Origin: a virus | IMG/VR virus record: IMGVR_UViG_3300030202_003582 | Coordinates: 1 to 20,134 of that record | Direction: 5' to 3' (one strand) | DNA length: 20,134 nucleotides | In this document: one piece after another, positions 1-19,080 of the stretch | Layout of the letters: each line of letters begins with the position of its first letter | Numbering within the stretch: the first letter of the stretch is position 1 | Program-made: the position numbers and the translations under genes | The notes under the pieces: model-generated | What the model saw: only the letters and a program-made list of their open reading frames with translations | Databases searched by the model: none | What the model was told of the DNA's origin: nothing

Positions 1-3000
1 GTTTCCGGTTTCATCATCTCTCAAAGTAGCATCATGTCTATTTAAATCAATATGACGAGATTGGTGACCACCAACCCATTGGTTTGTAAATGGGCTTTGC
101 ATCGCAACATCATTAGAAAAATCTATTGTATCGGAATGCATATTGGTAACATAAGCATCTGACCTGAATCCCGTAGCAAAAGCTGAATTATAGCCAGTAG
201 TTATTGAACCAGAGAATATATCAAACGGAAGATTATGAGCGCCTTTGATAGCATAATTATACGAAGCGCTATCATTAATCGGACTAAAAGAACCACCTGC
301 TCCAGTACTAACAGCATTCTTTCCAACATAAACTGTTGTATTAAACTTGTTTTTCTCGTTTGGTACCTCAATATCATCACAAGACGAAGGTAGTTCTACG
401 CCCTGTCCTGCACCTGCACCTACAATCAAGACATTAACAGGGATTCCCTGTGAAGTTAATCTAGATCCACGATTAACAGCAGACCATATATAGTCTCGGT
501 TCTTTTGGAGATTATAATTTATTCCGGAATGGACGGTTTGAGTGATTGAGGAACCAACTCTATATGTATTTGTGAACCTTCTTCTGGCATAAGTTGAGCC
601 TTGGTAGGTTGTGCGATTTGAGTTTGCTAAATTTGAAGATGTAGCATTATTATCATTAATGATAATCTCTCGGATTGATTCTCTCGCTGCTTGCGTTTGA
701 TAAGCCAATGCGTTGTAGGTTGAGATGTTTTCAAAGCTGCTTGAGATCTCTGTTGCTGTCAGGGTATCGCTATATAATCCGGTATTTGTTCGCTTTATTG
801 TGAAAGTGGCGTTTGCTCCATCCGCACCTGTGTAGGTTGCACTTCCAAAGTTTGTGGAAAATTTTGTATTTAAAGCAGCAGTAAGTTCATTTCTAATTGT
901 TGTATCTGATTTTGCAGCACCAAAAGGATTATTTCCTTTTACAAATTCGTAATCTGGGGCTTGCGAGCTGGATATCTCTAAATGATTTGCTCCTGTCCCA
1001 GCACTGGAAGAAATAGTGAACTGTGCGGCAGAAAGCCGACTATGTTCAGAAAACCCAAGTCCCGACCAATAATCTTCATATCCAAACTTATACCAATCAT
1101 TTATAGTAGAAGAACTAACAGAAGTTGGATTGAGCCATCGGCCTTTATTATATAACTTTGTCACGTCTGCTTGTGCTAGCAATTTATTTTTCCAAATGAC
1201 TATGTCTTGAAAGGCCATACTTTCGTCTAAATAGATATAAAAGTCGTCTATAGTTGTCGCAGAACCACCGGGGGCTCCCGGCCAAGTTGTGGAGATCTCT
1301 GCTCCGTTCTTCCAAAGTTTTGGACCAGTAGTGGTAGCCAAATTAGATACATCAAAAGTTATAACATAATGTGTCCAAACATTAACATCAGCTGAAATGT
1401 CTGTGTTGAAAGTTGCGTCTGCGTTTGTGCCTGAGTCATCGCGATACCTGACGACTATGTCGTCATCAAAAGTTATAAAATGCCTAAAAACACCACCAGA
1501 TTTTCTAAATTCAAAACGAGTATCATTTGTAGAAGATCCACTTATGTTGTTGAGCCAAAAAGCCACGGTAAAGTCATCGGTACCAAGACCACCGTAAGTT
1601 GTGTCTCTAGCATAAACTACCGTGCTTCCTGTTGAAGCAAAAGCCAAGCCATAAGAACCTGTGTAAATAAGGTGATCAATTGTCGAAGGATCAGAATCTG
1701 CGGACAGATCATCATTTGGATCTGCTATTACAGCTTTAAAAGCGTCAGAGCCTATGTTGACATTTAACGTTGCCTCATCTTGAAAACTAGTTTTTGTCTT
1801 TATATCAAAAGACAGAGAAGCATTATTTGAGAATCCCTCTGTTCTTTCTTTTCTTTCTTTCTGCCAAAGACAGTTATTGTTATCTCCGCCCTCTAATGGA
1901 GCATGACCGAACTGCCATTGATATTTTAACTCTCCAACACCTTTTACTCTACCTTCAGTTGCTGTGTGAGTTGAGGTTAGTGGGAATTTATTTTGATATT
2001 TGTTTCTCTCAAATAAGTGAGATTCGACAACATCAGAAATTCCTTTGGAGAAACGAACGCTCGCTGGGAACATTTGGGAGACCATATAGGATACAGAAGA
2101 GTCAATCCACTTAAAGTAGTCGGTGAATTTATCAAAATCAGGATCTTCCTCTACGTCTTCGAAAAACAATCTACGAACTTGATCAAGTTTCTTGTATTGT
2201 ATTCTGTATCTCTCAACTGCTTCGCCCATCAAATTAGACATTTCTTGAGCAGTTGATAAATTCCTCATCATTTCTTCTGAGATTACTTGATACATGCTCT
2301 TCTCTAGAGAGTAAAAGTTATCCGAAACATCTTCATCTTTTATGAAATACTCACGTTCTTCTCCATTAATTGTTACACGATCAGAGGAATAAGAGATTTC
2401 CGGGAGTTCTTTCTTAGAAGAATAGATAATTTCATTAGAAATAACATTTGTGGTTGATACGGGGAACCCGAAACCTTTTGCTCGGTGCTCTCTGCGAATA
2501 ATATTGTCCATCCAGCCGTATCTGCTGTCCGTTGAGCCACTAGAAACGTCAACCACGATGAATTCACCGGAGGCATCTGACGTGGATATTGTCTCAAAAT
2601 CCCAATCAGCAGTCAGCAATTCATATGAGGGAACTTCGATTTGCGATAAGTCTTTACCAAATATAGTTGAAGGACGACTTGACCTTCTATTTCCTCGTGA
2701 AGTGATATCTGTATTGTGCAGTTTGACTGAATCATCGGAAATATAGTCATACCATACGTCAAAACGTCCAATTTTTATGTCTGTTTGCTCCAAAACACTT
2801 CCGGTGAAGTTGGTTCTGTGTGCTCCAGCATAAAATCTCTTTGCATTTGAGAGGTAAGCCGAACCAGTATCATAGTTCAGACTTTGTGTTAATGTGAACT
2901 CATTCTTAATTGTGTCAAAAGCATGGTTTACACCATAGAACTCTAGTTGATAATTTCTGTTGGAAGATGTAACAACATTACCTGCTATCGGATAATCAAC

Positions 3001-5295: not shown

Positions 5296-6778
5296 CTTGT
5301 TCTACTCTGATTTTGAATGTATAGGGTTGCTCTCTGTAAGAAGAAAGAGAATCTTCATAGAAAGAAAGCTTCAATTCATATGTATAGCCCTCTTCTAATA
5401 AGTCCATATCCAAATCAAAGTAGTTTCCATCGGAATCATACGAAAGTATTGTTTCTCCCGTTGAGCCTGTTCCGTATGGTATTACTATCTTTTTATCCGA
5501 TGCTCTTGTGATTTGATAGGATGCGCTTTCTATCAATAGATTTTCTGGTTCTGATTTTGCTGTTGTGTAAATATTGGGAGACCAATTTTTCTGTCTAACA
5601 TAGAGTCTAAATCTTTCGGTTTGTCCTCTTGTATATTTTGGTTTAAGGTTTTTAACCTTCATAACATACTTTGAATTTGGGTTGTAATTTGAAAAAGAAT
5701 GTTCTTTTGGTACAATAACCGATCCAGTGTGTAGCTCACTACCGCTCATAGTCCAAACATCAACCAAATAAGGGTATGTTGAAGATATTGCGCTAGATGT
5801 CGCGGAGAATATTGCTTTGTATACACCTTTAGATTCTCGTGAAGCAGATAAGAAATTTACCGCAGTATTGGAAGAATCTCGGAAATAAAGCGCGTCTAAT
5901 TCAGGTACAGACCCAGAAGACTTGTAAAGGTTTAGAACAGGTCGTGCGTTGGAATCTCCGGCAATATCGCGAAGATTTCCCCTAATATAGTTATACATGT
6001 AAAGCGTGTTTAAGTTTTCCGTTGCAGGCGAAAGAGATGAGCTGAAATAAAAATTAGCTCTGTTATCTCTTCTTGTAGAATCCCAACGAGCCTCTAGTAC
6101 GGGACGACTAAAATAAAACTCTGATGATCTTGCGAAGAATTTTTTTGTATAATAAGAAAACCTTGCACCTTCTGGGTTTATAGAGGAAGACGCTTCATAT
6201 GATGCTGAGAGGTGAACTCCAAAACCATAGTTTTCTTTTGTATCGGCAAGCCATTCTTCAACCAAAGTTGTTACATTTACTTCAAGATCTTCGTCACCTT
6301 TGTCGAAAGAAGCAGAATATATTGGAGAAGCGTGATAATCACCGCCGGCTGTTGTCCAACTAGTCGATCCTGCTCTGCGGACCCAATTGGATCCAATGTC
6401 ATCGTAAGTTACATCTGTATATCCTTCCATATCTAGTCCATTTCCTTCTTCCCATGAAGCGGAAACAGCCAATACATCAAGCTTATAGTTTTTTGGAAGT
6501 GTATGCGGATGCCTAGCATTAAACATTTTTAAATAATATGAGACACCGGAAGCCGGTATAATCTCAGCATTTTTATCTGCTTTGATTTCGTTGATGGGAA
6601 ACTTAAGAATGATTCTTGACAATTCAGTTGAGGTAGCACTCTCTTGAGCATATATTGAGAAAGTCTCTAATATGTCGGCCTGTCCCATATTAGAGCCGGT
6701 TCCGCGAGTTGTTAAGTTTTCTTGAAAAGCATTTGTGATAGTATTATCAGCGTCTGCAAAGTATCTTTTAATGGCCAT
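5285..6778 (-). CDS. Structural protein with DNRLRE-like beta-sandwich, baseplate-associated
   Basis: This 497-aa protein starts at an ATG that overlaps the gp6 stop codon (TAATG, 1 nt), suggesting translational coupling. Residues 1-232 follow the layout of DNRLRE-type carbohydrate-binding beta-sandwiches. There is an N-terminal 'ADADNTITNAF' and 'GTGSNMGQADILE', a strand SRIILKFPI, a later YYLKMFNA, then SASWEEGNGLDME with several spaced tryptophans, and closing strands VEEWLADTKENYGFGVHL and RPVLEARWDS. Residues about 240-497 are also predicted beta-rich (Tyr/Ser/Thr-rich, with LYVRQKNW and YTFKIRVEQ) and may form further sandwich domains. I see no catalytic motif. Its place between gp6 and the LamG giant suggests a virion part at the outer wedge or fibre attachment site. 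The DNRLRE reading is pattern recognition by eye, and the protein could simply be an uncharacterised phage structural family. Confidence 0.75.
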   Translation of the reverse strand: MAIKRYFADADNTITNAFQENLTTRGTGSNMGQADILETFSIYAQESATSTELSRIILKFPINEIKADKNAEIIPASGVSYYLKMFNARHPHTLPKNYKLDVLAVSASWEEGNGLDMEGYTDVTYDDIGSNWVRRAGSTSWTTAGGDYHASPIYSASFDKGDEDLEVNVTTLVEEWLADTKENYGFGVHLSASYEASSSINPEGARFSYYTKKFFARSSEFYFSRPVLEARWDSTRRDNRANFYFSSSLSPATENLNTLYMYNYIRGNLRDIAGDSNARPVLNLYKSSGSVPELDALYFRDSSNTAVNFLSASRESKGVYKAIFSATSSAISSTYPYLVDVWTMSGSELHTGSVIVPKEHSFSNYNPNSKYVMKVKNLKPKYTRGQTERFRLYVRQKNWSPNIYTTAKSEPENLLIESASYQITRASDKKIVIPYGTGSTGETILSYDSDGNYFDLDMDLLEEGYTYELKLSFYEDSLSSYREQPYTFKIRVEQDEY

Positions 6779-8577
6779 TATTTTGCTATCCCTTTAATAT
6801 CTTCGTCTGGAAATTTTAATTCCAGTATTGAATTGTTTGGTGTTTGATAAAACGTTCCGTCTTTTGAAATTATTTTATCCATATCTAGAGTGATTGGAGA
6901 ATATGCTCCACCAGTTTTGTTATTTATTTTGACTTTTCTCACGTCAACAACGCCGTCAACACGATTGAGTATCTCATAAACTCTTGTTATATATAGAGGC
7001 TCTCCGATATAGAATTTATCCGAGTATAATTGTCTCGTTTCATTTATACATTCTCTTAAAACAGCATCTTGAGAATACTTCTTGTCAACCATAACTGTGA
7101 ATTCAACTCTAAAATTAATGATTTTGGGGTCATAAATTTCAATTTGATCGTTAAGGGAGCGATACTGATTGAGCCAGTTTTTGATGTTGTTTTTGGTTAT
7201 TTGATTTGTCTCAGATAAATGTCCACTATTATCTTGTGATATCAAATAAAGAGAAAGTCTTCTATTAGAGGAAGAAGGATCATTAATAATATTGGCTCTT
7301 GTGACGGCTCCATATTGTGGAGGCATGTTATATATGAGAGATTCATAGTCTTGCTTAGTTACTGCGCGATTTTGGGTTGCAAAATAGGATTTTGCTCTTT
7401 GCTTCAACTCTTCAGCTGATATATCTACATTAATCGACGTAATCGGATTGTCATTGTTCACTTCTAAAGAATTTTCAACAAAAATTCTTTGTGAATTGGT
7501 CAAAATTGTAGAATCTTGAAAAACATATTGTTTTGTAGACACTGCTGTGAGTGAATTTGCTGCCACATTTGTGGACTGTGGGGAGTTTGAGCGGTAAACA
7601 ACACTTAATTCTGTATTGGAAGGTGATATACCAAGCTTATTTGTAGTAATTAATTTGGTTGGATCAAATGACTTAGAGGAAATATAGTCTTTGCCTAGCA
7701 TTTTGAGAGCCACGCGTGAAGGGTCTGTGATACCTCCATCATCTGTGTCCTCAGATCCAAAGCCAAACTGAAGATATGTTCCTGTGTCGTCTTGTTCTAA
7801 TGTAAACCTTCTAGCAGTTGCAAAAGGTTTTAAGATGGAGCGAACACCATCAGTCGCAGCATTTTGATTTGTTGTCTCCACAAAAACTACTTCTTGAGAA
7901 AGATTCTCAACTTCGTAATATCTGTTTCCGGAAGAGTCATATACTGATAGGATTTGAGAGATGTTGGGGCCACCAATCCGAACTTTTTTAAATCGCTCAA
8001 AAGCACTGTTGTTTAGATCAACAGTTGCAATATTTAATACTCCGGACTGTACTTGACCATAATTACGAACAGCAAAGTAAGTTGTTGCCCCTGTTGTTGA
8101 ATTAAATCTAGCAGCCACAACATCCGAAGATATATCAGCAAAATCTATGTCTTCTGTTAGGATAAAATTTCCACCCTCAGAAGTGGTGAACGAAGTACCT
8201 GCTTTCAAAACCGGTAGATAGGCTGTATCTGGTGCTGTTCCATCAGTATTAGCAGGGCATAAGATAAACAACGATACTGTTCCAAACGAAGACGGAGCAC
8301 CAGCAAACTTGTAACCAAAAGCTCTTGCGTGCTTTCTTATATTATCAAATTCCAGTGAAGTATCTAAAAAACTTTCGTTGACATGATAATCTAAATAATA
8401 AGATAATATATCTCCTGTATAAGCAACCGTATCCAATACCAAAGAACCGAATGAAGCAGCAGAGAAGTCTCTGTACCCATCGGGATAGTATCTTTTCGCA
8501 TATTCCACTAAATCTTCCTTAATGCTTTCAAAATCTCTGCTCGTATATTTTACAGCAACATTTTTATTTTTTGGCAT
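6778..8577 (-). CDS. gp6: Baseplate wedge protein, T4 gp6 / Baseplate_J family
   Basis: Homologues of this protein form the continuous inner ring of the contractile-tail baseplate and link wedges around the hub. The N-terminus carries the family signature (KYTSRDFESIKEDLVEYAK, then FSAASFGSLVLDTVAYTGD and SYYLDYHVNESFLDTS). The C-terminal half has the Baseplate_J-like segment AKSYFATQNRAVTKQDYE followed by a repeat-like beta region ending VDGVVDVRKVKI. I chose the ATG at 8577 (599 aa). A longer frame from a TTG at 8592 would add only five residues, whereas the ATG has a GAGAGG Shine-Dalgarno 7 nt upstream. The protein follows gp25 after a 42-nt gap and overlaps the next gene by 1 nt. T4 gp6 is 660 aa, so the length is typical. 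The family assignment is confident; close relationship to T4 itself is not implied. Confidence 0.92.
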   Translation of the reverse strand: MPKNKNVAVKYTSRDFESIKEDLVEYAKRYYPDGYRDFSAASFGSLVLDTVAYTGDILSYYLDYHVNESFLDTSLEFDNIRKHARAFGYKFAGAPSSFGTVSLFILCPANTDGTAPDTAYLPVLKAGTSFTTSEGGNFILTEDIDFADISSDVVAARFNSTTGATTYFAVRNYGQVQSGVLNIATVDLNNSAFERFKKVRIGGPNISQILSVYDSSGNRYYEVENLSQEVVFVETTNQNAATDGVRSILKPFATARRFTLEQDDTGTYLQFGFGSEDTDDGGITDPSRVALKMLGKDYISSKSFDPTKLITTNKLGISPSNTELSVVYRSNSPQSTNVAANSLTAVSTKQYVFQDSTILTNSQRIFVENSLEVNNDNPITSINVDISAEELKQRAKSYFATQNRAVTKQDYESLIYNMPPQYGAVTRANIINDPSSSNRRLSLYLISQDNSGHLSETNQITKNNIKNWLNQYRSLNDQIEIYDPKIINFRVEFTVMVDKKYSQDAVLRECINETRQLYSDKFYIGEPLYITRVYEILNRVDGVVDVRKVKINNKTGGAYSPITLDMDKIISKDGTFYQTPNNSILELKFPDEDIKGIAK

Positions 8578-8584
8578 GTGTAAT

Positions 8585-8590
8585 CCTCTC
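8585..8590 (-). promoter_or_regulatory. Ribosome binding site of gp6
   Basis: GAGAGG on the minus strand lies 7 nt before the ATG at 8577. It favours that start over the in-frame TTG at 8592, which it overlaps. Confidence 0.7.
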
Positions 8591-8619
8591 AACTAAAATA
8601 AGTAGTTTTTGTTAGGATT

Positions 8620-9039
8620 TTAAAGTACGTTATCACTAACTTCGTTAATTGTTAGATCAAATGTTGAAGAAGTGGGGCTATCGGTCACCGAATACTTTAT
8701 TTTTATATTCATTCTGTTGGAATCTGCGAATAAATTAATCTGTAGGTCCAAAACTGCTATATAAGGTACAAATGTTGATAATTGTGACAATATATTCTCA
8801 CGCAGAGGCGGTAGCCCATTAGAACCTCTAGTGATTGTTGTATTGTTTTCAAAAAGATATTGTTTAAGTCCTACGCCAAAAGCAGGGTTCATTATACGTT
8901 CTCCCGGAGAAGTCAGCAGTGTCATTTTGATATTCTGATCTACTACTTTGGTGAGATCTGTTACGCCGTAAATTTCATATCTTCCGGTCTCGTCGTTTAC
9001 CTGTAGTGGCATTTTTGGCGCTATTGTTTGTGTTGGCAT
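8620..9039 (-). CDS. gp25: Baseplate wedge protein, GPW/gp25 family
   Basis: This 139-aa protein matches the gp25/gpW family in size (T4 gp25 is 132 aa) and layout. Family members sit at the inner baseplate next to the hub and are proposed to help start sheath assembly. The N-terminal part has DLTKVVDQNIKMTLLTSP, followed at residues 44-58 by SPGERIMNPAFGVGL, the place where the family carries its conserved loop before the F-G-x-x-L element. LFENN comes next, then the ENILSQLSTFVPYIAVLDL helix-strand unit and closing beta strands. The ATG start has only a weak, distant AAGGG upstream. It lies 15 nt after the giant 2195-aa gene and 42 nt before gp6. The gp25-gp6 order is the standard one in contractile tails. 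Confidence 0.9.
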   Translation of the reverse strand: MPTQTIAPKMPLQVNDETGRYEIYGVTDLTKVVDQNIKMTLLTSPGERIMNPAFGVGLKQYLFENNTTITRGSNGLPPLRENILSQLSTFVPYIAVLDLQINLFADSNRMNIKIKYSVTDSPTSSTFDLTINEVSDNVL

Positions 9040-9054
9040 AGTTAAAAAACCCTT

Positions 9055-12000
9055 TTATTTAAATAGTTTTCCAAAGCTATTTTTACATTCATTGCCATCT
9101 TTGTCAAATGGACTATTTTTTCTTATTCTTCTTTGTATGTCAAATGAATATTCTCCGTAGTTTATCAATTTTAGACCAGCAAGAATTTTTCTTTGGGCGT
9201 GCTTCACAATGTCTTCATTATTTTCCTCTTCATTTGGAGGATCTCTATCGTTGTTCTTATAGAAAGATACAAACAGCTTTCTTGCTTCGCTTTTTGAATC
9301 ATTAAATATCTTGCCGAAATTACTTGGAGAGATTGGATTCTCATCATCGCCTGGTTCACGTTCAGACTCAGAACCTAAAGAAGCCAACAAGTTATTGTAC
9401 GAGTAAACCATGTATATTGAAGGAATTTTTTTGATTTGCAAAACGTTGTCAACTAAATGTTTAAAGTTTTTAGTACCAACTAGTTTGTCGATGTAACACT
9501 TAAGGTCTTGATCCAAATTGTCATCAGAGTCCAGTAATTCTTGCATTTTTACATCTATAATGTCTTGTTCAAACGAGGCTATAGGGAAGGAGTACTTGGA
9601 TGCCTGAAGAGTGGATTGACCTGAGTCTGTCTGGAATGTTGCAGGGTTTTGTACAAAACTTCTATGTTGTCTGGCCAGTTGATCTGTTTGAAGATTTAAT
9701 TCAGTACCTTCTGGTGGAATATAACAGAGACGAACACCATACTTAATACCAATAGAACCCTCATATTCTTCACCGTTTTCACTTAAAACAGCGTCTCCGA
9801 AGAAGTCGGATACATTACTATCCGGAGTGAAGACAAAACGGTTTTGGTTTAAAAAGTTCTTGAATTCGGCAATATTTTGGATACCTGACGGTGGATTTAT
9901 AAGTTGTGGTCTAGTGTTTTGCTTGGGCTGTGAGACAACATATTTTTCTAAGTAAAGACCACCTCTCTTTTTAATCTCTTCATATCTCTCATCTGTTATT
10001 GTTGTGCCGTTAAGAGCATGAACCATGTTGGATCTTGCGCAACCAACAATGTCACCATAAGGAAAATTGCCTACGCCGCCTCCAATTGGGACTTCGTTGT
10101 CGTATACACCCGCTTCAATCTGTTTTCCGAGGAGCATATGGGAACCACCAATAAAAAATTTACGGATGTCATAGATATAAGGTCTCGGCTCAATCTCTTC
10201 TCTCATCTTCTTGGTATATATTGCAAGTTCTTCTTTGATTATATATTTCAGTAGCTTTTTAATTTCAGGCAGAACTGTGTGTATTGCGTTTATTTTTTGA
10301 GCGAACTTTGCTCGTTCAATTGATAGCCCGAAGAGTCCAAATGATAACGTCTGAAGACTTTCCAAAATATCTGGTCCACCGGAGCCTATTATAGCGATTC
10401 CTGACTCTACTTGTCTAGCCATTTCTTGTAGTCTTTGACCATATTCATTTCCTCCGACTGCTGCCAATAACGCTCTTCTTTCTTCTGGTTCATTGATATA
10501 TTCTAAATCTTTTGGAGTGACGGCATCTTTTGCATATTGCTCCTGTAAACTGTTACATGTTTCCAGAACTTTTTCTATCTCTTCGTTACTTTCTATTTGA
10601 TCAGCGCGGACTTTGCGATGTACCATTTGCGTAACTTGCTCCAAAAACAATAATGCATAAGTATACCCCTCATATGTGGAAGCAAAAAATGATGTTTCAT
10701 TTCTGAGGTCTTTAAATATTTTTTCTGAGATGTAATTTAACATTGTATTATCAAAGTTTCTCTCAACATCTAAGTGTACATTTGAAAAAATAGGAAAGCT
10801 TCTAATCAAGAAATCACTAAGATGCACTCTTATGGTTGCTCTAATAATACCCTCAATAGTCGCCATTGTATCTGAATTTGCTATCTTATCAAAAGGCAAT
10901 TCTGTTGTACACTCCGGTGAATAAGGCAGCAATTCATGGTTTTTAATTTTCTGTTTAGTCTTATTTATTTGCTTGACTATACTATCCAACATCATAAAAT
11001 TAGAATTCTTTGGATCACAGCCGGTTGGGTTTGGTACAACAATACGAGAGAACTGGAGCCACCCTTTATAATCTGCCTCTGAAATATAAATCTGGGGCTT
11101 TAGATATGTGCCCCCATATTTTTCTGGATCTAAGAAGTGGACTCTTGGGTTATTTGTTTTGCTTCTTCCAAGAACTTTATCTTCTTCTTCGTAGTTATAC
11201 TCTTCACCATCTGGTCCAACATAGACCAGATCACTATCTTCTAAAATGGGTGTATCTTCACTTCCATACAGGAACCCTTCTGATGTTTGCCCATTTCTTC
11301 TTTTAGTAAAAGCCTTGGGTAGTTTATCATAGATGTCTGCATTCAGACCTTCAAATATTTTAATGCTGTCCAAATCAACATCCCCAAATTCGCTCCATAT
11401 TTCTTTAAACATCTTATCTAAAGTTTGAGCAGAGAATGGAGTTTGAAAAGTAATTGTACCTTGATTTGGTTCATATTCTTCTGGTACTTCTAAGAAATTA
11501 TCTGTTAAAGTACTTACAGAGCTCTCAGGATCTGAAAACTGTATTTTGCCGGTTGGATCAAATGTATCATTAACCACCAATCTGCTTACAAAGTTTTGAT
11601 TACCACTTTTCTCGTTATCATAGTTAATAATATAATCTTTGCCAACTTCATAATTCGAAGGCTGCTTATCAATATATTCTTTGAGTTGAATAGCAACTGT
11701 TTCCGGCAATTCCATTTTATCGCCACCCAAAAGGAAATTTAATATTATATTATTTTTTACAGCTATATGATAATTTATGGTATCATTCTTGTTATTTGAT
11801 AATATAATACTTAAAACACCCGGTGTATTGGGGCCAAATCCACCGAGAGAACTAAAAAAGTTTGCCTCAATCGTATCATCAATGAAGGCTCTCTCTAATC
11901 TCTTAAAAATTCCTGTTATAGCGTTTGATATTGCTTGTTGTTGATTTTGAGGGTAGTCTGAAAATGACGGTATAATCCCTTTATTTGTTTTGCAATCCGG

Positions 12001-15000
12001 ATCTTTTGGGTTTAGAGCCTCGTCAATAGCATCACTCAAAGCGTCTTCTGGACCATTTATTAAAAGATCGGCGATCTCTGCCAAGTCACTTTTGGCTTTT
12101 TCATTTTGTTTATCGACAAATTCTTTTCCCAATTCCGGATCTGAAAAAGCCGCTCTTCTTTCTTGATCCCACAAATCCTTTTGTTCTTTGGTTAAACAGA
12201 TACTTGTTTCCACAGGAAATTCCGCTAAAGGCTGTGAAAGTTCTCTTTGAATACCCTGTCTTTGTTCTGGTGTTAAAATATTACCCATAGTTTGGAAATA
12301 TTGTGCGGCTGCATTTGAGTCTCCGAAAATATCTGAAAATTGTGGCAATACATTTGATACAAGAGAAGAAATATTATCTAAAAAAGACTGGTTTGCTTGA
12401 CCGACCATAGCACTTTTTATTTCTTTTTGTGTTGCAGATACTGATAAAAGCCTAGCTAAATCTCCGACTGCGGAGGCTCCTTTTGCCGCTGCCCCACCTG
12501 CTCCAGCGACTTTCTCACTTAACTTATCTCTTTGGTCATTTGTTTTTGGATCAGGACAGAGAGTATCCTCTATAAACCCTTCTAACCCTCCATCGTTCAG
12601 TAAATTTCCTGTTAGGTTTCCGGCAACCTGGCAATAATCAGCATTCAGGATTTGTGTTGTTTTCATCATAATAGCAATTATGACTCGTGAAAATATTTGA
12701 CGAAGAGCAATATAAAAAGCATCACCAAGTAATTCTACCCAATTGAAACTTGTAGGTATTTGTTGAATATTAGGAAGAGAGAATCGGGTTTTTTCTGTAC
12801 TGCAAGGGTCGAATGTCAATGTTGATAGAAAAGACTCAATAGGTGGATATATCAAAGGATCAGTGCCACAACGAAACTGTGTTACGAGTTTCCCTAAAAG
12901 ATCCGCACCGGGAATGTTTTCGATCGCCCTTTGAAGTTCTCCGATAGAAGCGGTCTTCATGATCTCGTCAATATACGCTTGAGTTAATGCCTTTTGAACA
13001 TTACCGAGAGCTTTACCAAGTGTTCCTTGTTGAATTTTATCACTTGGGGTTGTTGCGACTATTGTTGTTTTCTCTTTTTGTTTATCAATCATCTCCTGTT
13101 GATCTTCTTCTGAAAGATTGGAAAAGTTTTTATACTCTGAATCTTCTTTGGCGGTTTTATCTAATTTGTATTTTTTTGATGTAAGAATTTCTATTTCTTC
13201 ATTTATTGAGGATATCTGCTCGTTAAGAAGATCTAAGAATCTGTTTTCATTTGGATAGTAATTTCCACTACTATCTATTTGCATTATGTCCTTAAAAGGT
13301 TCAAGTCTTTTTTCCGCATCGGTAATACTAAGTAAATTATTTTTTTTGACTTCTTCTAACTCCTTTATTATCTTCTTCGTATCGGTAATATTATTTTTTA
13401 TTTTTTTTATAACTTCTAGATACTCAGTATATCTGTCTTCTCCGATGTAATATGATTCTTGCTCGCGGGTAACCCTAAGCTCTGATTCGTGCTCTCTTAA
13501 ATATCTTCGGTTATCTGCAATCTCTTCATCTTTTCGTAGATTATCAGATTTATAACCTATTATTTCATTATTGTATTGATCATAAAGCGCTTTGATTCTT
13601 AAGAGTTCTGCGCTGCCTTCTCCTCCTTCCGAATTAAATGTACTAGCGGTTTCTATTTTCTTGTCTCGCTCTTTTTCTAAATCTTCAATTTGCTTCTTTA
13701 GTGAAGCAGAAGTATCTACTCTTTCTTCTTTTTCTTTAACATTAGAGCGAGCTTGTCTGTCGACTGCTTTACCTAGAGAGCCGCCCTGCCAGCCTGGATC
13801 CCATGGGTAAGGCATATCTTTGAATTGTTTTTCTATTTCTTTTCGGATCTCTGCTTGTTTATTAGCCGGTAAAGTCTGCATTATGATTTCCAACGCTTCT
13901 TCGCCGACAGAAGATATAATCTGCTTTATTAATGTATAGTACATTTCGTCTAAGGTTAGTCCCGCCGAGATACATTTAAGAGCAACGGATAGATTACCAG
14001 CAAAATCACAGGGATTTAGCGCTTTTACATAATCCCCTGCTGCTTTCAGGGGATTATTTCCGACATCGCCGGCAGTGGGTAATTGTACGTTCTTGGCTCC
14101 TTTTGCAGCTGCTGAGCCCAGAGAACTAGCTGCTTTCTCTTCTTTGCTCTTGTTCTTTTGGAGTAATCGCTCTCTAAATGCATCTTCCAAATCCTTTATT
14201 TTTTTAAGAGAGTCTGGAGATCCTGAGAAAAAGTCCTGTATCTCTGCTCGTTGAGCCAATAATTCTTCTTTTGTTTTGCACTTATTTTGGTTAAACTTAT
14301 ATTCAATTGCTTTGAATAAATCCATTGTTTCATTAAGTATGAAATCTGACATGTCATTTAAATTGTCTTTTATACAACTATCATCTTCAAAATTATCAGA
14401 ACTTCCATAATTTACTAGTAATTGTGGAAAAGTATTCTCAACAATAAAATCCAACCACGGAGGTGTCTTGTTTCTTTGCAGAATTGTAGAAATTTGATTT
14501 ATGTTTGAGAAATATCCAAGCATAGTTTGATCTGTTTTAGTCTTATCGATGAATAATTGAAGTCCCACTTTGCACTCTACATATGGGCAATTAAACTTTC
14601 TAGCTCTCACATTCTTTATTGTAAAAGGATTGGCTTCATCTGATTTGTCGAAAGATACCTCAACCTCAAAAGCAATATTTTGTGATTTAGCTCCTGTATT
14701 AGCGAATCCTCGGAGATCAAATCCGTTCTTGCCTAATAAACTGTCTAATCTATCGACAAACTTCTTTATTCTTTCATCAGAATAGAATTTTATATAAAAC
14801 GGATTTCCGGTTTCTTCAAAATACAAAGATCCGTTTTCTTCTCTATAGAAATATGATTGGAAAGTCTTATATGATCCCATAGCAGATTTGAATAATTTTA
14901 TTGCTCTCATAAAATCTGGAGGCTTAATTACTATCTGATCTGTTGAAGTGTTTAAAGAACCAAGGTCTGGTGCCGCTGGGACTGCATCAAAACGATTCGC

Positions 15001-15642
15001 TGGGACACCAACAAGAACAACAAGCATTTTTTGACTTGTGATAAAGGTATAATCCTGAACGCGTGCTACAAGCTCTAAGGCACTAGTGTTTGTTATTTCT
15101 GGAATTCTGCTTATTTCACTGGATACTGATGTTCTGACCCATCTGCTTGGAACTTGTTCATCTGTTATTTGATCTTCCCTAATAACATATTGTTCGTAAT
15201 CAATATTAAAAACTCCTCTGCATATATCTCCCTCAAACTCGGGGGGCGAAGCACACACAATTTCATCTGTTTCTAATTTGCCATAATGTCTCAGCATCTT
15301 CCGAATACCCGGTCTTATATAAGACTTTAGTAGGTTTTTAAGTGTATATGGCGACTCTGATAAGCTTTTAAATATTCTACTACGGGAATCGCTTGGTTTA
15401 TATTCCAGTCCATCATGATACAAATCGCCATCAAGATTTATTGTAACTCTGACTTGGTATTCGCATTTCTTCTCATTAAGATATGGCTCATCCATTACAG
15501 TCCAATCTGGCTCAATATAATTTTCATTTGGAATACAAGTCGGACATATCTTGTCTGGTTCTAAGACTTCTAATTCCTCTTCTTCTTCTGGGCTTTTGAA
15601 GCACACTTCTTCTTGTAATGGTTTAAATTTTGATTCTGACAT
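9055..15642 (-). CDS. Giant 2195-aa multidomain protein of unknown function in the baseplate cluster
   Basis: A single uninterrupted frame of 2195 codons starts at an ATG preceded by GTGAGAAAATA and ends 15 nt before gp25. I do not recognise the family. Residues 1 to about 420 look mixed alpha/beta, with a paired-cysteine CPTC at residues 33-36 and strands such as CEYQVRVTINLDGDLY and FITSQKMLVVLVGV. Residues about 420-620 are helical with NPCDFAGNLSVALKC. Residues about 640-860 are highly charged Lys/Glu-rich coiled coil. Residues about 880-1240 are helical and hydrophobic in places (RQIFSRVIIAIMMKTTQ), with more cysteines and Ala/Gly-rich stretches (two AAAKGA motifs, near 510 and 1050). 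Residues about 1240-1530 are again mixed; about 1590-1900 are mainly helical; the last 300 are mixed. It could be a hub/spike platform, a fusion covering several baseplate functions, or an ejected protein. A tape measure is less likely because long parts are not helical. Its location supports a virion role only by inference. Confidence 0.7.
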   Translation of the reverse strand: MSESKFKPLQEEVCFKSPEEEEELEVLEPDKICPTCIPNENYIEPDWTVMDEPYLNEKKCEYQVRVTINLDGDLYHDGLEYKPSDSRSRIFKSLSESPYTLKNLLKSYIRPGIRKMLRHYGKLETDEIVCASPPEFEGDICRGVFNIDYEQYVIREDQITDEQVPSRWVRTSVSSEISRIPEITNTSALELVARVQDYTFITSQKMLVVLVGVPANRFDAVPAAPDLGSLNTSTDQIVIKPPDFMRAIKLFKSAMGSYKTFQSYFYREENGSLYFEETGNPFYIKFYSDERIKKFVDRLDSLLGKNGFDLRGFANTGAKSQNIAFEVEVSFDKSDEANPFTIKNVRARKFNCPYVECKVGLQLFIDKTKTDQTMLGYFSNINQISTILQRNKTPPWLDFIVENTFPQLLVNYGSSDNFEDDSCIKDNLNDMSDFILNETMDLFKAIEYKFNQNKCKTKEELLAQRAEIQDFFSGSPDSLKKIKDLEDAFRERLLQKNKSKEEKAASSLGSAAAKGAKNVQLPTAGDVGNNPLKAAGDYVKALNPCDFAGNLSVALKCISAGLTLDEMYYTLIKQIISSVGEEALEIIMQTLPANKQAEIRKEIEKQFKDMPYPWDPGWQGGSLGKAVDRQARSNVKEKEERVDTSASLKKQIEDLEKERDKKIETASTFNSEGGEGSAELLRIKALYDQYNNEIIGYKSDNLRKDEEIADNRRYLREHESELRVTREQESYYIGEDRYTEYLEVIKKIKNNITDTKKIIKELEEVKKNNLLSITDAEKRLEPFKDIMQIDSSGNYYPNENRFLDLLNEQISSINEEIEILTSKKYKLDKTAKEDSEYKNFSNLSEEDQQEMIDKQKEKTTIVATTPSDKIQQGTLGKALGNVQKALTQAYIDEIMKTASIGELQRAIENIPGADLLGKLVTQFRCGTDPLIYPPIESFLSTLTFDPCSTEKTRFSLPNIQQIPTSFNWVELLGDAFYIALRQIFSRVIIAIMMKTTQILNADYCQVAGNLTGNLLNDGGLEGFIEDTLCPDPKTNDQRDKLSEKVAGAGGAAAKGASAVGDLARLLSVSATQKEIKSAMVGQANQSFLDNISSLVSNVLPQFSDIFGDSNAAAQYFQTMGNILTPEQRQGIQRELSQPLAEFPVETSICLTKEQKDLWDQERRAAFSDPELGKEFVDKQNEKAKSDLAEIADLLINGPEDALSDAIDEALNPKDPDCKTNKGIIPSFSDYPQNQQQAISNAITGIFKRLERAFIDDTIEANFFSSLGGFGPNTPGVLSIILSNNKNDTINYHIAVKNNIILNFLLGGDKMELPETVAIQLKEYIDKQPSNYEVGKDYIINYDNEKSGNQNFVSRLVVNDTFDPTGKIQFSDPESSVSTLTDNFLEVPEEYEPNQGTITFQTPFSAQTLDKMFKEIWSEFGDVDLDSIKIFEGLNADIYDKLPKAFTKRRNGQTSEGFLYGSEDTPILEDSDLVYVGPDGEEYNYEEEDKVLGRSKTNNPRVHFLDPEKYGGTYLKPQIYISEADYKGWLQFSRIVVPNPTGCDPKNSNFMMLDSIVKQINKTKQKIKNHELLPYSPECTTELPFDKIANSDTMATIEGIIRATIRVHLSDFLIRSFPIFSNVHLDVERNFDNTMLNYISEKIFKDLRNETSFFASTYEGYTYALLFLEQVTQMVHRKVRADQIESNEEIEKVLETCNSLQEQYAKDAVTPKDLEYINEPEERRALLAAVGGNEYGQRLQEMARQVESGIAIIGSGGPDILESLQTLSFGLFGLSIERAKFAQKINAIHTVLPEIKKLLKYIIKEELAIYTKKMREEIEPRPYIYDIRKFFIGGSHMLLGKQIEAGVYDNEVPIGGGVGNFPYGDIVGCARSNMVHALNGTTITDERYEEIKKRGGLYLEKYVVSQPKQNTRPQLINPPSGIQNIAEFKNFLNQNRFVFTPDSNVSDFFGDAVLSENGEEYEGSIGIKYGVRLCYIPPEGTELNLQTDQLARQHRSFVQNPATFQTDSGQSTLQASKYSFPIASFEQDIIDVKMQELLDSDDNLDQDLKCYIDKLVGTKNFKHLVDNVLQIKKIPSIYMVYSYNNLLASLGSESEREPGDDENPISPSNFGKIFNDSKSEARKLFVSFYKNNDRDPPNEEENNEDIVKHAQRKILAGLKLINYGEYSFDIQRRIRKNSPFDKDGNECKNSFGKLFK

Positions 15643-15649
15643 TATTTTC

Positions 15650-16576
15650 TCACGTTGTATATACCGAGTCGCTTAGAATATTATTACCACCAGGTATCAA
15701 ATCACTATCTAGAGAGTTCATATCTCCCAAGTATGTATTTAAAGTATTTAATATTGATTCTAAAAAATGCGTACCGTTTCTTTGCATAAAGGGCCCAAGT
15801 GCAATGGCTGCTCCGGGAAGAGCAGAAACTATTCCATTAAGCGTCATTAAATTAAGATTCATCGTACTCAGCATTTCATACATCTTTTTCTCTTTTTTGT
15901 TTTTACTTTTAAGATAATCAACTAAGTTATTTCCCAAAACCATTGGGTGCAACTCTCCATTGCCAACTTGCAACTCAATTACTTGTCCTTGGAGCCTCTC
16001 ACCTAAAGTGTTTGTTTGGCCAACTCCTGTTTCAAAACCTTCAAAATTTCCACGACCACAATATATTCTAACTTTTTCTCGCCCTATTAGTCTTACTTGG
16101 TCCGCATTAACGGCGACAGCTGATTTATTGATTGCGTTCTGGCCACCGGAGGGCTTTAACCCAAAATATTGATCTATATCTTTTGCTTTTTGAGTTATAT
16201 AGACTCTTGCCGCATCTGAGTGGAACATAGGGCCGACAAACTCAACACCGCTTAACGGATCTTTGTTTTCTTTTTCATTGTTAGCAATAATCAATTGTCC
16301 TCTTCCGGCAACCAGATCAATCATGCCACATTGTGTCATTCCATCGCCGCCGTTGCCGGAAGCCCACGATGCATTTCTATCTCTGCCCAATACAACAAAC
16401 GCATTGTGATTACCTTGCATTACAACTTCACACTTTGCTTTATCAAACTCAGGAATTTTTTCGTCTATATTTCCACAAAAAAGACCTGCTGCTCCGTTCT
16501 CAACTAGTCTTCTAGAGTAGTCGGTGGCTGTATTTGATAAGTTTGTTGATTTTTTATAAAATTCTTCTGTTGGCAT
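15650..16576 (-). CDS. Putative spike- or baseplate-associated structural protein, beta-rich
   Basis: This 308-aa protein starts at an ATG with GGAG 8 nt upstream, 3 nt after the M15-peptidase gene, and ends 7 nt before the 2195-aa gene. Residues about 45-175 are beta-rich and carry distinctive motifs: NAFVVLGRDRNASWASGNGG, GMIDLVAGRGQLIIAN, and AARVYITQKAKDIDQYFGL. The alternating strand SAVAVNADQVRLIGREKVRIY recalls the stacked beta repeats of spike proteins (gp5/VgrG-type). Residues about 225-308 look helical, with a hydrophobic SALPGAAIALGPF segment. I have a recollection of this motif set in uncharacterised marine phage proteins but know no proven function. Its position directly after the OB-M15 protein makes a spike-tip or hub accessory role plausible. 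No enzyme motif is visible, and a membrane role for the hydrophobic segment cannot be excluded. Confidence 0.7.
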   Translation of the reverse strand: MPTEEFYKKSTNLSNTATDYSRRLVENGAAGLFCGNIDEKIPEFDKAKCEVVMQGNHNAFVVLGRDRNASWASGNGGDGMTQCGMIDLVAGRGQLIIANNEKENKDPLSGVEFVGPMFHSDAARVYITQKAKDIDQYFGLKPSGGQNAINKSAVAVNADQVRLIGREKVRIYCGRGNFEGFETGVGQTNTLGERLQGQVIELQVGNGELHPMVLGNNLVDYLKSKNKKEKKMYEMLSTMNLNLMTLNGIVSALPGAAIALGPFMQRNGTHFLESILNTLNTYLGDMNSLDSDLIPGGNNILSDSVYTT

Positions 16577-16579
16577 TAC

Positions 16580-17758
16580 TTAACTCCATATCTCGTTTAT
16601 TTTTATCCACTGAATGTGCCAAGACTCATCTGAACCAGCTCCATCTCTGAGTATTGGAGGGCTCTCAAAGCCAAATCTTGGTGCATTTTCAAGCATCCAT
16701 TTATAGGTCTCTGATTGAAATCCGGATTTATTATTATAGTGTGTACTGAAATCAAAAGCCAAGCCCCAGCCGTGATTAGAAGTGCCCGGCTTTGCGGCTT
16801 CACCACTTTTACCTTCTTTCAGTTTTTTATCTTTTATTTTTATTTGTTCATTGAAAGTTCTGTAAGAGTCGTTCAGTACCAATTTTTGATTGAATTTATT
16901 CTCAAATGCAATTGCTAATCTGTCAAAATCATTAATAACGTCTTTCAAAAGCAAAGCAGGAAATCCAGTTGCAGAACTAGATTGCCCTATCAATTCTTGT
17001 GGTAATAGGCCATTTTCCAACTGCTTTCCTTTGAACGCTTCAATAGAACCTTTATATGTTTTCTTTATTGGCTGATGAGATGCGCCATCTGATGTTTTAT
17101 TTGTTTTTATATTTTCGCTTGTTGATTCGGAGACATATGTTTTATCTTTGTCTCTTAAAGATTCCAAGACACCTGAAGAGGCTTCTTCTGTTGGTTCGTA
17201 AGGTGCGTAATCCCCTCGCTTAAAAGCAGCTTGAGCAGAAGAAGGTTTTTTAGCGTTTCCTTCAGAAGAACCAAATAGACACTCATAGTTAATTCCTACT
17301 CCCGAAAACTTACGCGTAATATTTGGCCTATAAGTCAGTCCCCTAAGTTTACCAGAAGATTGCGGCCCATTCTTAAAAAAACACTCAACTACGCGTGCAT
17401 CGTTGAAAGGTTGGGGATCCGAGGTTTGGATTTTTCCACCTTCTGTGGAATCCGGATAAGCAATCGGGTGCAAAGACAAAATTCGCTTTCGCGTCTCAGG
17501 ATCTTCAAATTCACATGGCTCAGGTATTATAAAATCATAAACACCTAGTGGTCTAACCCTGACCGCTCTTTTACCATCAAAAATTATTGATTCCCCTAGA
17601 TTTTCTGGTAATATAACTGCATCAAACGATGTTTTACCTGCGAGACTGTTGAAAAAAGTCTGAGCTACTGCTTGGAGGTTCATTTCCTTTTGCATAGCAT
17701 AATAGGACTTTGGGTCCGATAGAGCGTTGAATAACGCTGTAAATAAACCTTTGGCCAT
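16580..17758 (-). CDS. Tail-tip peptidoglycan hydrolase: putative OB-like hub domain plus M15 peptidase
   Basis: The C-terminal domain (about 270-392) has the full metal-binding signature of M15 peptidases (VanY/DacY-like D,D- or L,D-carboxypeptidases and endopeptidases). It shows SYR with Arg300, SNHGWGLAFDF with His329 and Asp336, and ESWH with Glu378 and His381. These would hold zinc and cut stem peptides of peptidoglycan. Residues about 55-145 are beta-rich (KRAVRVRPLGVYDFIIPEP; ARVVECFFKNGPQSSGKLRG) and look like the OB-type domain at the start of T4 gp5-like spikes. A Ser/Lys/Glu-rich linker of about 100 residues joins the two. There is no signal peptide. The ATG overlaps the previous stop by 1 nt (TAATG), with AGAGGA 6 nt upstream. 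It is probably a virion-borne enzyme that opens the wall at infection. An endolysin role is less likely given the N-terminal domain and the tail-gene setting. Confidence 0.85.
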   Translation of the reverse strand: MAKGLFTALFNALSDPKSYYAMQKEMNLQAVAQTFFNSLAGKTSFDAVILPENLGESIIFDGKRAVRVRPLGVYDFIIPEPCEFEDPETRKRILSLHPIAYPDSTEGGKIQTSDPQPFNDARVVECFFKNGPQSSGKLRGLTYRPNITRKFSGVGINYECLFGSSEGNAKKPSSAQAAFKRGDYAPYEPTEEASSGVLESLRDKDKTYVSESTSENIKTNKTSDGASHQPIKKTYKGSIEAFKGKQLENGLLPQELIGQSSSATGFPALLLKDVINDFDRLAIAFENKFNQKLVLNDSYRTFNEQIKIKDKKLKEGKSGEAAKPGTSNHGWGLAFDFSTHYNNKSGFQSETYKWMLENAPRFGFESPPILRDGAGSDESWHIQWIKINEIWS

Positions 17759-18045
17759 TACTCTTCCTCTTTATTAATCATTGAATAGATATCTTCCATA
17801 TCATCCTCAGTTAATCCTTGAGATTTTTCATTTTTAGACATAAGAGTGGCGATTTTTACAATCTGTTCGTTTGATCTTTGCAGAGTCTCAACATATTTAG
17901 CCAAGGTCATTCCAATTTGTTGATGCCTTGCTTCGTCTTTAACAACAAATTTGATAGCATCATCAAGGAGTTCGCGTGTTATTTTGCGGTCTTCTCGAAT
18001 GTTATCAAGTGCTTCTTTTAAATGTTCTTCTACTTTTTTACTCAT
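17758..18045 (-). CDS. Small helical protein of unknown function next to the sigma factor
   Basis: This 95-aa protein is predicted almost fully helical and highly charged. It has a stretch KEALDNIREDRKITRELLDD, then ARHQQIGMTLAKYVETLQRS and an acidic tail (LTEDDMEDIYSMINKEEE). It has no cysteine, no membrane segment and no known motif. The start lies 17 nt after the sigma-factor stop, with no clear Shine-Dalgarno, and the stop overlaps the M15 gene by 1 nt. Translation probably depends on coupling. Its size and position beside a gp55-like sigma invite comparison with small transcription partners such as T4 gp33. I see no sequence feature proving this, and a chaperone or structural role is equally possible. 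Confidence 0.7.
   Translation of the reverse strand: MSKKVEEHLKEALDNIREDRKITRELLDDAIKFVVKDEARHQQIGMTLAKYVETLQRSNEQIVKIATLMSKNEKSQGLTEDDMEDIYSMINKEEE
17765..17770 (-). promoter_or_regulatory. Ribosome binding site of the M15 peptidase gene
   Basis: AGAGGA on the minus strand lies 6 nt before the ATG at 17758, inside the last codons of the 95-aa gene. It fits re-initiation at the TAATG overlap. Confidence 0.6.
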
Positions 18046-18062
18046 ATATTAAATAGAACCAA

Positions 18063-18749
18063 TCAAATATTTACATTATCCCAATCGGTCTTAAACAACT
18101 TATATTTTTTACGAAATTTGTTCAATTGTGTCACTACTTGCTTGGTATTCATACCGGTAATCTCTCGGAGATACAAATAAATTGCTTTTTTGTTGAAGAT
18201 TTCTATCTCCTCAACAGAACCTAACAAGATTCTTATGGCTTCATATACTTTTCGTTCATTCTCATTCATATCATTGGTTCCCCATCCATCCATTTCAACT
18301 TCTAAGTGTTCCCAGAATTCTCTCTTTTCTCTTTCTTGTTCATGTGTATCATAATAGACTACCTGTTCAAAGGTTAATTCTTTGATAGCATCATCATAGT
18401 CAACTTCTCGTTTTGCTCTCTTGGCTCGTTGTTTTACCTTGTGGATAAACCAGTTCTTGGTAATCACACTAAAATAGGAAAAAGCCTTAGATTTCTTAGA
18501 AACGTCGTATTTTCCTAGTATAGTGGTAAGCCATATCTTGCAATCTTCTCTTAATTCATCGATATTAGGGAGAGTGGTAAACTTATACGTGAACACAATC
18601 TTATCAACCAATTCATTAAAAGCTGGTTGGATTAACTCTACGTATAATTTTGTTTTTTCTTTACGGCAGTTTGAAGCAGCGTACTTAAGTATCGCGTCTT
18701 CGTGAACCTGCGTAAAATACATTCTCTTCTTGGACTTTGGTCTGGGCAT
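18063..18749 (-). CDS. gp55: Putative late-transcription sigma factor, T4 gp55-like
   Basis: This 228-aa protein resembles the phage late sigma family, which directs host RNA polymerase to short late promoters with a DNA-loaded sliding clamp. The N-terminus reads MYFTQVHEDAILKYAAS, followed by helices like sigma region 2 (IQPAFNELVDKIVFTYKF, then GKYDVSKKSKAFSYFSVI, residues about 77-95). A very basic stretch follows (HKVKQRAKRAKREV). An acidic linker leads to a C-terminal helical part (YLYLREITGMNTKQVVTQLNKFRKKYKLF) that could be a helix-turn-helix. I chose the ATG at 18749 because of the CAGGAA site 7 nt upstream; an extension to 18797 would need a TTG. Another ATG at 18722 (MYFTQ) remains possible. 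The start overlaps the previous gene by 65 nt. T4 gp55 is 185 aa and lacks a region-4 domain, so this is a divergent relative. Confidence 0.72.
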   Translation of the reverse strand: MPRPKSKKRMYFTQVHEDAILKYAASNCRKEKTKLYVELIQPAFNELVDKIVFTYKFTTLPNIDELREDCKIWLTTILGKYDVSKKSKAFSYFSVITKNWFIHKVKQRAKRAKREVDYDDAIKELTFEQVVYYDTHEQEREKREFWEHLEVEMDGWGTNDMNENERKVYEAIRILLGSVEEIEIFNKKAIYLYLREITGMNTKQVVTQLNKFRKKYKLFKTDWDNVNI

Positions 18750-19080
18750 TAATTTGTTCCTGTTGTTGTGGTGGCACATCTTCTTCCACATCCTCAAACT
18801 CTTCTAGAAAGAATTCTTCATCTTCAAAGTCTTCTAGAAGGGTCGATATAGACCTTGTGTGATCTAGTAGATGCTGTAGTGTTTCATCCCCATAAAACAT
18901 TTCCATTGAGTATACGGATTTTAGATGTGCTCTGTAATTAGCAATAATATCGGACACTTCCCCTATGTTATCGTAGATAAAAGTTAATCTTTGAGTAAGT
19001 TGTCGTAAATACCAAAACATGACACCATTGAAAATTAATGATCCTACTAAAACTGTTATTAAAATTACGGTACTACTCAT
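18685..19080 (-). CDS. Single-pass membrane protein with acidic cytoplasmic tail, unknown function
   Basis: Residues about 3-25 of this 131-aa protein form one hydrophobic segment (TVILITVLVGSLIFNGVMFW), likely an uncleaved N-terminal membrane anchor. A helical part follows with HLKSVYSMEMFYGDETLQHL, which I recall from small proteins of marine T4-like phages. The C-terminal third is very acidic (Asp/Glu-rich, about residues 80-105), then Gln-rich, ending GSRRRDT. The start overlaps the zinc-ribbon stop by 8 nt, and the last 65 nt overlap the sigma-factor start in another frame. No function is known to me. A role at the host membrane during infection is inferred from the anchor alone. Confidence 0.72.
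   Translation of the reverse strand: MSSTVILITVLVGSLIFNGVMFWYLRQLTQRLTFIYDNIGEVSDIIANYRAHLKSVYSMEMFYGDETLQHLLDHTRSISTLLEDFEDEEFFLEEFEDVEEDVPPQQQEQINAQTKVQEENVFYAGSRRRDT
18757..18762 (-). promoter_or_regulatory. Ribosome binding site choosing the sigma-factor start
   Basis: CAGGAA on the minus strand lies 7 nt before the ATG at 18749 and inside the coding sequence of the preceding membrane protein. It supports that start over the TTG at 18797. Confidence 0.5.

What the first reader, a model, noticed from the sequence alone, without database searches (positions are those of the whole stretch)
9055..15642. A 2195-aa unrecognised protein between the spike-like genes and gp25
In contractile tails the stretch just before gp25 normally holds hub, spike and small baseplate genes. 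Here one 6.6-kb gene fills it. It has paired cysteines at the N-terminus, a coiled coil at about 640-860, hydrophobic helical parts near 980 and mixed alpha/beta ends. It may be a fusion of several baseplate functions or a new type of central baseplate component or ejected protein. No gp53- or gp27-like gene is visible separately in the window.
Basis: partly seen in the sequence, partly recalled or inferred. Interest (0 to 1): 0.68.

Follow-up and report, generated by a model that had tools for sequence, protein, structure and literature searches.

The report
Giant extra protein in T4-type baseplates
A 249-kDa protein of unknown fold is encoded, always in the same place among the tail-tip genes, in a large group of uncultured viruses with contractile tails; it comes on top of a set of the usual tail-tip parts and is probably a very large, cysteine-rich structural piece beside the cell-piercing spike.

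Summary
The 2195-aa gene is real: minus strand, 15642 to 9055. It has no match in Pfam, PHROGs, PDB or 50,697 phage genomes. It is not isolated. Iterated scans of IMG/VR gave 75 distinct homologous loci; the full-length proteins run from about 1,940 to 2,765 aa, always as one open frame. In all 72 loci with enough DNA it is followed by gp25, and in all 56 with upstream DNA it follows a spike-type gene. So it belongs to a baseplate operon.

The proposed gp27 + gp53 fusion is not supported. In giant-bearing contigs a gp53/LysM-like wedge gene, tape measure, tube connector, gp26-like gene and candidate hub sit in a separate tail module, in the order seen in giant-free relatives (Flavobacterium phage immuto, Microcystis phage Mel-JY01). 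The giant is an addition.

Two clues: 19 cysteines are nearly invariant across 20-79% identity; and a hypervariable central arm (25-446 aa) carries a peptidoglycan-binding domain in one clade.

Best reading: a giant structural baseplate protein beside the spike, with an arm that can reach the cell wall.

The parts
9055..15642 (-). Giant gene, 2195 aa, 249 kDa, pI 4.9
   Evidence: single open frame; 75 distinct homologous loci, same place in all
15463..15603 (-). Residues 14-60: near-invariant four-cysteine motif C14, C33, C36, C60 (consensus CPTCxPNP), zinc-site-like
   Evidence: cysteine in 55-56 of 58 aligned proteins; the rest are gaps in truncated records
14203..15642 (-). Residues 1-480: conserved N-terminal region, no recognised fold
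   Evidence: median identity to window 31%; no PDB, Pfam or PHROG match
13123..13752 (-). Residues 631-840: hypervariable arm, heptad signal at both ends; PG_binding_1 domain in the same place in 5 homologues
   Evidence: median identity 13%; arm 25-446 aa; PF01471 at 55.1 and 45.9 bits, cut-off 23
11923..13122 (-). Residues 841-1240: conserved part with C925, C947, C1004, C1029, C1149, C1217
12661..12732 (-). Residues 971-994: most hydrophobic segment, borderline membrane-helix score
   Evidence: 19-residue hydropathy 1.62
10543..11322 (-). Residues 1441-1700: best conserved block (GFxYG..DLxYVxP, FLDPxxxGG, LLFLEQ; C1542, C1578)
   Evidence: median identity 34%; used as alignment A5 to reach 55 loci
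9058..10242 (-). Residues 1801-2195: conserved C-terminal region (C2049, C2186)
   Evidence: median identity 31%
15650..16576 (-). 308-aa spike-type protein, directly upstream; in several homologous loci the giant's frame opens with a GTG overlapping this gene's stop
   Evidence: weak hhalign match to immuto OB/spike C-terminus (10%); upstream in 56/56 homologous loci
16580..17758 (-). 392-aa gp5-like position: N-terminal part (OB-fold suspected, not tested) plus C-terminal VanY peptidase
   Evidence: PF02557 E 6e-15; in relatives the hydrolase is swapped for Amidase_2, tail lysozyme, muramidase or M23
8620..9039 (-). gp25-like baseplate wedge protein, 15 bases downstream of the giant
   Evidence: PF04965 E 7e-11; phrog_261
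6778..8592 (-). gp6-like baseplate wedge protein
   Evidence: phrog_219 E 4e-21
5285..6778 (-). 497-aa conserved neighbour of the wedge genes
   Evidence: present in the homologous loci that extend far enough
1..5295 (-). 1765+ aa protein (incomplete in window) related to the giant-free phages' 1265-1336-aa gene (GpI/gp7 place)
   Evidence: hhalign 97% to immuto protein
17758..18045 (-). 95-aa conserved operon member
18063..18797 (-). 244-aa gp55-like late sigma factor (weak match)
   Evidence: phrog_234 E 0.033; position conserved

Best explanation
The gene encodes a giant structural protein of the baseplate, made with the spike and wedge proteins and built into or around the centre of the baseplate next to the spike. 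SHOWN: strict gene order with spike, gp25 and gp6; vertical conservation; presence on top of a separate tail module with tape measure, connector, gp53-like and candidate hub genes; 19 near-invariant cysteines; a hypervariable central arm that in one clade carries a peptidoglycan-binding domain; an upstream partner gene with swappable cell-wall hydrolases. INFERRED: it is in the virion; the body (about 1-630 and 840-2195) is a rigid scaffold stabilised by disulfides or metal; the arm projects and, where it has the wall-binding head, holds the baseplate on the peptidoglycan while the neighbouring hydrolase opens it.
For: Gene order [TM131, sigma, 95 aa, OB/hydrolase, spike] - giant - [gp25, gp6, 497 aa, LamG/GpI]: gp25 follows in 72/72 loci with downstream room, spike precedes in 56/56. 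No giant in immuto, Mel-JY01 or LR756508 at that place, yet their tail module (gp26-like, tape measure, connector, gp53-like) is matched gene by gene in giant-bearing contig G003. Sheath found in 9 and candidate hub in 7 of 12 giant-bearing contigs. 19 near-invariant cysteines. PG_binding_1 inside the arm of L129, L128, L135, L137, L078, which fall in one clade of the gp6 tree. Hydrolase swapping in the upstream gene.
Against: No fold, no proteomics, no isolate. No similarity to any known virion protein. Gene clusters also hold non-virion assembly factors. The PG-binding head occurs in only one clade, so wall contact may not be general; in L042 the arm is only 25 aa. Invariant cysteines alone do not tell disulfides from zinc.
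Confidence: 0.55

Rival explanations
1. It is ejected into the cell, or forms the inner needle or channel that crosses the envelope, rather than staying in the baseplate.
For: Central helical part with a hydrophobic segment at 971-994; peptidoglycan-binding insertion in some members; acidic, coiled-coil-like arm.
Against: A separate tape measure gene of the usual kind exists (G003 704 aa, BLAST E 2e-4 to the tape-measure-position gene of Mel-JY01, 0.003 to immuto's annotated tape measure). Only one borderline hydrophobic segment. Gene lies with spike and wedge genes, not with the tape measure.
Confidence: 0.15
2. It is a non-virion assembly factor, a giant scaffold or chaperone for spike and wedge.
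For: T4 needs such factors (gp51, general knowledge); the operon has other unknown small genes.
Against: A 249-kDa assembly factor would be without precedent known to me; 19 near-invariant cysteines and a wall-binding insertion suit a surface part better.
Confidence: 0.13
3. It is a fusion of known baseplate proteins (gp27 + gp53 and others).
For: Size and position; several conserved blocks separated by variable stretches.
Against: No block matches gp5, gp6, gp7, gp8, gp9, gp10, gp11, gp12, gp25, gp26, gp27, gp28, gp29, gp48, gp51 or gp53 of T4 while controls work for gp6 and gp25; gp53-like and candidate hub genes are separate. Targets were single sequences, and the candidate hub itself did not match T4 gp27 either, so very remote homology is not excluded.
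Confidence: 0.1
4. It is a host-binding or fibre-anchoring platform at the edge of the baseplate.
For: Large, multi-block, with a variable arm.
Against: Apart from the arm it is evenly conserved (median 18-34% per block) with no fibre-like variable C-terminus.
Confidence: 0.07

Closest known systems
T4 baseplate (gene cluster 53-5-5.4-6-7-8; gp25 elsewhere)
   Same: Same setting: spike/lysozyme gene, gp25-like and gp6-like wedge genes, same virus superfamily by terminase, portal and sheath.
   Different: T4 has no protein of this size or sequence at that place; no profile similarity to T4 baseplate proteins.
Flavobacterium phage immuto, Microcystis phage Mel-JY01, LR756508
   Same: Nearest named relatives by gp6 (30-33% identity) and terminase (40-45%); same operon order around sigma, OB/spike, gp25, gp6; same tail module order (immuto, Mel-JY01).
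   Different: 139-223-aa proteins stand before gp25 where the giant stands here; no similarity to it.
Agrobacterium phage Milano tail (PMC10811340)
   Same: Precedent for functional cysteines in a contractile tail and baseplate: disulfides lock wedge, centrepiece and sheath.
   Different: There the bonds join many ordinary-sized proteins; here the cysteines sit in one giant, and their bonding state is unknown.

Membership tests
T4 gp27-type hub | sequence or profile similarity to gp27 | tested here: not met
   hhalign of six pieces, at most 0.8% against T4 gp27; no PDB profile hit
T4 gp53 / LysM-type wedge protein | similarity to gp53 or LysM-type wedge families | tested here: not met
   no such PHROG match for any scanned member; a separate 110-aa gene matches phrog_7145
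Tape measure protein | similarity to tape measure families, or the only such gene in the genome | tested here: not met
   one of 41 members scanned (A7, A8) gives a weak match (phrog_58, E 9e-4); separate tape measure in G003
Tail lysozyme / gp5 spike | catalytic cell-wall hydrolase domain | tested here: not met
   only a non-catalytic PG_binding_1 domain in 5 members; hydrolases are in the upstream gene
Virion baseplate protein (functional class) | gene in the conserved baseplate operon | tested here: met
   72/72 with gp25 downstream, 56/56 with spike upstream
Virion baseplate protein (functional class) | present in virions, in baseplate density | not testable with these tools
   no isolate, no proteomics
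Any fold of known structure | structural match | not tested

The most novel reading that the evidence does not exclude
A lineage of T4-type phages has gained one giant, cysteine-stabilised protein that forms a previously unseen layer or cage around the spike, with coiled-coil arms that grip the peptidoglycan before or during puncture; the cysteines may also act as a redox or metal lock on firing.
Probability: 0.22. Interest if true: 0.78.

Novelty: new variant of a known kind. Interest (0 to 1): 0.58.

Why it matters
The baseplate parts list of contractile tails is thought to be well known. Here a widespread group of uncultured viruses adds a protein of roughly 215-300 kDa with no known relatives next to the spike. 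If it is in the virion it would be one of the largest tail-tip subunits, and it offers a natural series (arm nearly absent, arm present, arm with wall-binding head) for asking how phages get through the cell wall.

Tried and rejected
Pfam and PHROG scans of the giant and of 41 homologues: no family except PG_binding_1 in the arm of one clade, scattered weak single-member hits, and endolysin PHROGs explained by that same domain. PDB profile searches: nothing. tblastn of four family members against 50,697 phage genomes: nothing for three; for L129 only its PG-binding domain region matched endolysins. GTDB genome contigs: two pattern scans, no relative. Internal repeats by profile self-comparison: only the overlaps I made myself. 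hhalign against sister-phage proteins at the same locus (immuto 371 aa, annotated 'RecN'; Mel-JY01 343 aa): no relation. Co-loss of cysteines to read off disulfide pairs: too few losses; only clade-limited extra cysteines 1061/1099 co-occur perfectly, which shared descent could explain. Paper searches found no description of the family.

Full report
OBSERVATION. The frame is real and at the stated place, on the minus strand: ATG at 15642, stop ending at 9055, 2195 aa, 249 kDa, pI 4.9. One hundred shuffles of the window gave at most 221 open codons. The gene starts 7 bases after the stop of the 308-aa spike-type gene and ends 15 bases before gp25. In several relatives an in-frame GTG overlaps the spike gene's stop, a sign of translational coupling.

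NEIGHBOURS. Downstream: gp25 (PF04965, E 7e-11), gp6 (phrog_219, E 4e-21), a 497-aa conserved gene and a large gene related to the 1265-1336-aa protein near gp6 in giant-free phages. Upstream: the 308-aa spike-type gene, then a 392-aa gene with a C-terminal VanY peptidase (PF02557, E 6e-15), a 95-aa gene, a gp55-like sigma factor (weak match) and a small 131-aa gene.

FAMILY. The protein itself has no Pfam, PHROG or PDB match and no tblastn match in 50,697 phage records. Scans of IMG/VR, first with the single protein and then with growing alignments, reached relatives at 20-79% identity. I count 75 distinct loci, with full-length members from about 1,940 to 2,765 aa, always as one frame. Three further members gave no phage-genome relative beyond one domain. 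Two scans of GTDB genomes found none. So the family is known here only from uncultured viral contigs; host unknown.

GENE ORDER. Profiles of each neighbour were searched in every locus. gp25 is the next gene in all 72 loci that extend past the giant; three run off the contig. The spike-type gene precedes in all 56 loci with upstream DNA. The order [131 aa, sigma, 95 aa, OB/hydrolase, spike, GIANT, gp25, gp6, 497 aa, LamG/GpI] holds across the family, with small gaps where a locus ends or a profile fell short. This is strong evidence that the giant belongs to the baseplate operon.

NOT gp27 + gp53. The nearest named phages by gp6 and terminase are Flavobacterium phage immuto, Microcystis phage Mel-JY01 and the uncultured jumbo phage LR756508. 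They share the operon but have proteins of only 139-223 aa directly before gp25. The tail module of immuto and Mel-JY01, elsewhere in the genome, reads sheath, tube, gp26-like, tape measure, connector, gp53-like, hub candidate. In giant-bearing contig G003 (141 kb; it holds the giant's first 194 aa and then ends) the same module is present: two tube genes, gp26-like (phrog_150, E 2e-18), tape measure, connector (BLAST E 7e-11 to Mel-JY01, 3e-9 to immuto), gp53-like (E 2e-9 to immuto; phrog_7145; PDB 8kea baseplate gp16, E 2e-5), a 1308-aa candidate hub and a 400-aa gene. A sheath relative is found in 9 of 12 giant-bearing contigs, including those of 185-191 kb, and the candidate hub in 7 of 12. 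Caution: the hub label rests on position; it did not match T4 gp27 or any PDB chain. Six pieces of the giant against 18 T4 tail proteins gave at most 4% probability, while the window's gp25 and gp6 families scored 97% and 73%. The giant is therefore best seen as an addition to a set of the usual parts.

ANATOMY. Fifty-eight proteins were aligned. Blocks at window residues 1-480, 841-1240, 1441-1700 and 1801-2195 are conserved (median identity 28-34%); 641-840 is not (13%) and varies from 25 to 446 aa in length. In the window it has heptad signal at both ends with a weaker middle. In L129, L128, L135, L137 and L078 a PG_binding_1 domain sits in this arm between helical-looking stretches (PF01471, 55.1 and 45.9 bits in L129 and L078, cut-off 23). 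These five fall in one clade of the gp6 tree (100/100), so one gain is enough. The endolysin PHROG matches come from this domain; no catalytic domain was seen. The upstream gene carries the hydrolases, and they are swapped between relatives: VanY in 13, Amidase_2 in 4, tail lysozyme in 4, others in one or two.

CYSTEINES. Nineteen cysteine columns are 95-100% conserved: 14, 33, 36, 60, 352, 423, 455, 545, 557, 925, 947, 1004, 1029, 1149, 1217, 1542, 1578, 2049, 2186. Most missing cases are gaps. The first four look like a zinc site; several others lie in near pairs. Phage Milano shows that a contractile tail and baseplate can be locked by disulfides (PMC10811340). Which applies here is unknown.

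MECHANISM. The best reading is a giant structural baseplate protein beside the spike: a cysteine-stabilised scaffold with a variable arm that in one clade binds the cell wall, next to a spike partner that cuts it. Operon membership and anatomy are shown; virion presence, location, symmetry and wall binding are inferred. Rivals are an ejected or needle protein, an assembly factor, a cryptic fusion of known parts, and a host-binding platform.

LIMITS. No metagenome scan was available. The profile comparison used single sequences as targets and can miss very distant homology. Contig completeness is unknown.

VERDICT. As a protein family it is unrecognised; as a system it is a new variant of the T4-type baseplate.

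Noticed in passing
window 16580-17758 and the same gene in relatives (alignment A11): The gp5-position gene swaps its C-terminal cell-wall hydrolase between relatives: VanY, Amidase_2, tail lysozyme, DUF2272, muramidase, M23; one has an OmpA domain.
   Followed up: partly
L049:17468-18576: Two tail tube (gp19-like) genes in tandem in giant-bearing contig G003; similar pairs in L172 and L174.
   Followed up: no
L030:33446-35935 and 36944-39424: Jumbo phage LR756508 has two tail sheath genes close together.
   Followed up: no
L029:25761-29921 and L029:36475-38202: LR756508 portal and prohead protease frames hold long insertions that split the homologous parts (232-535 and 712-1117 of 1387 aa; 185-449 of 576 aa), possibly inteins.
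   Followed up: no
L140, L133, L127, L139, L160, N-terminus of the giant: Some giants have 200-507 extra N-terminal residues without any Pfam match above its cut-off.
   Followed up: partly
L028:25555-28368 against window 16580-17758: In immuto the VanY peptidase is fused to the hub-position protein; in the window it is fused to the gp5-position protein. The lysin module has moved between tail-tip parts.
   Followed up: partly
L022:13021-14136: Immuto gene annotated 'DNA repair ATPase RecN' lies between spike and gp25-type genes and has no PHROG match; the name looks wrong.
   Followed up: no
window 19558-20133; L005, L009, L038, L042, L044 upstream ends: A cassette of glycosyltransferase, epimerase and other sugar genes of changing content lies just upstream of the operon in relatives.
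   Followed up: no
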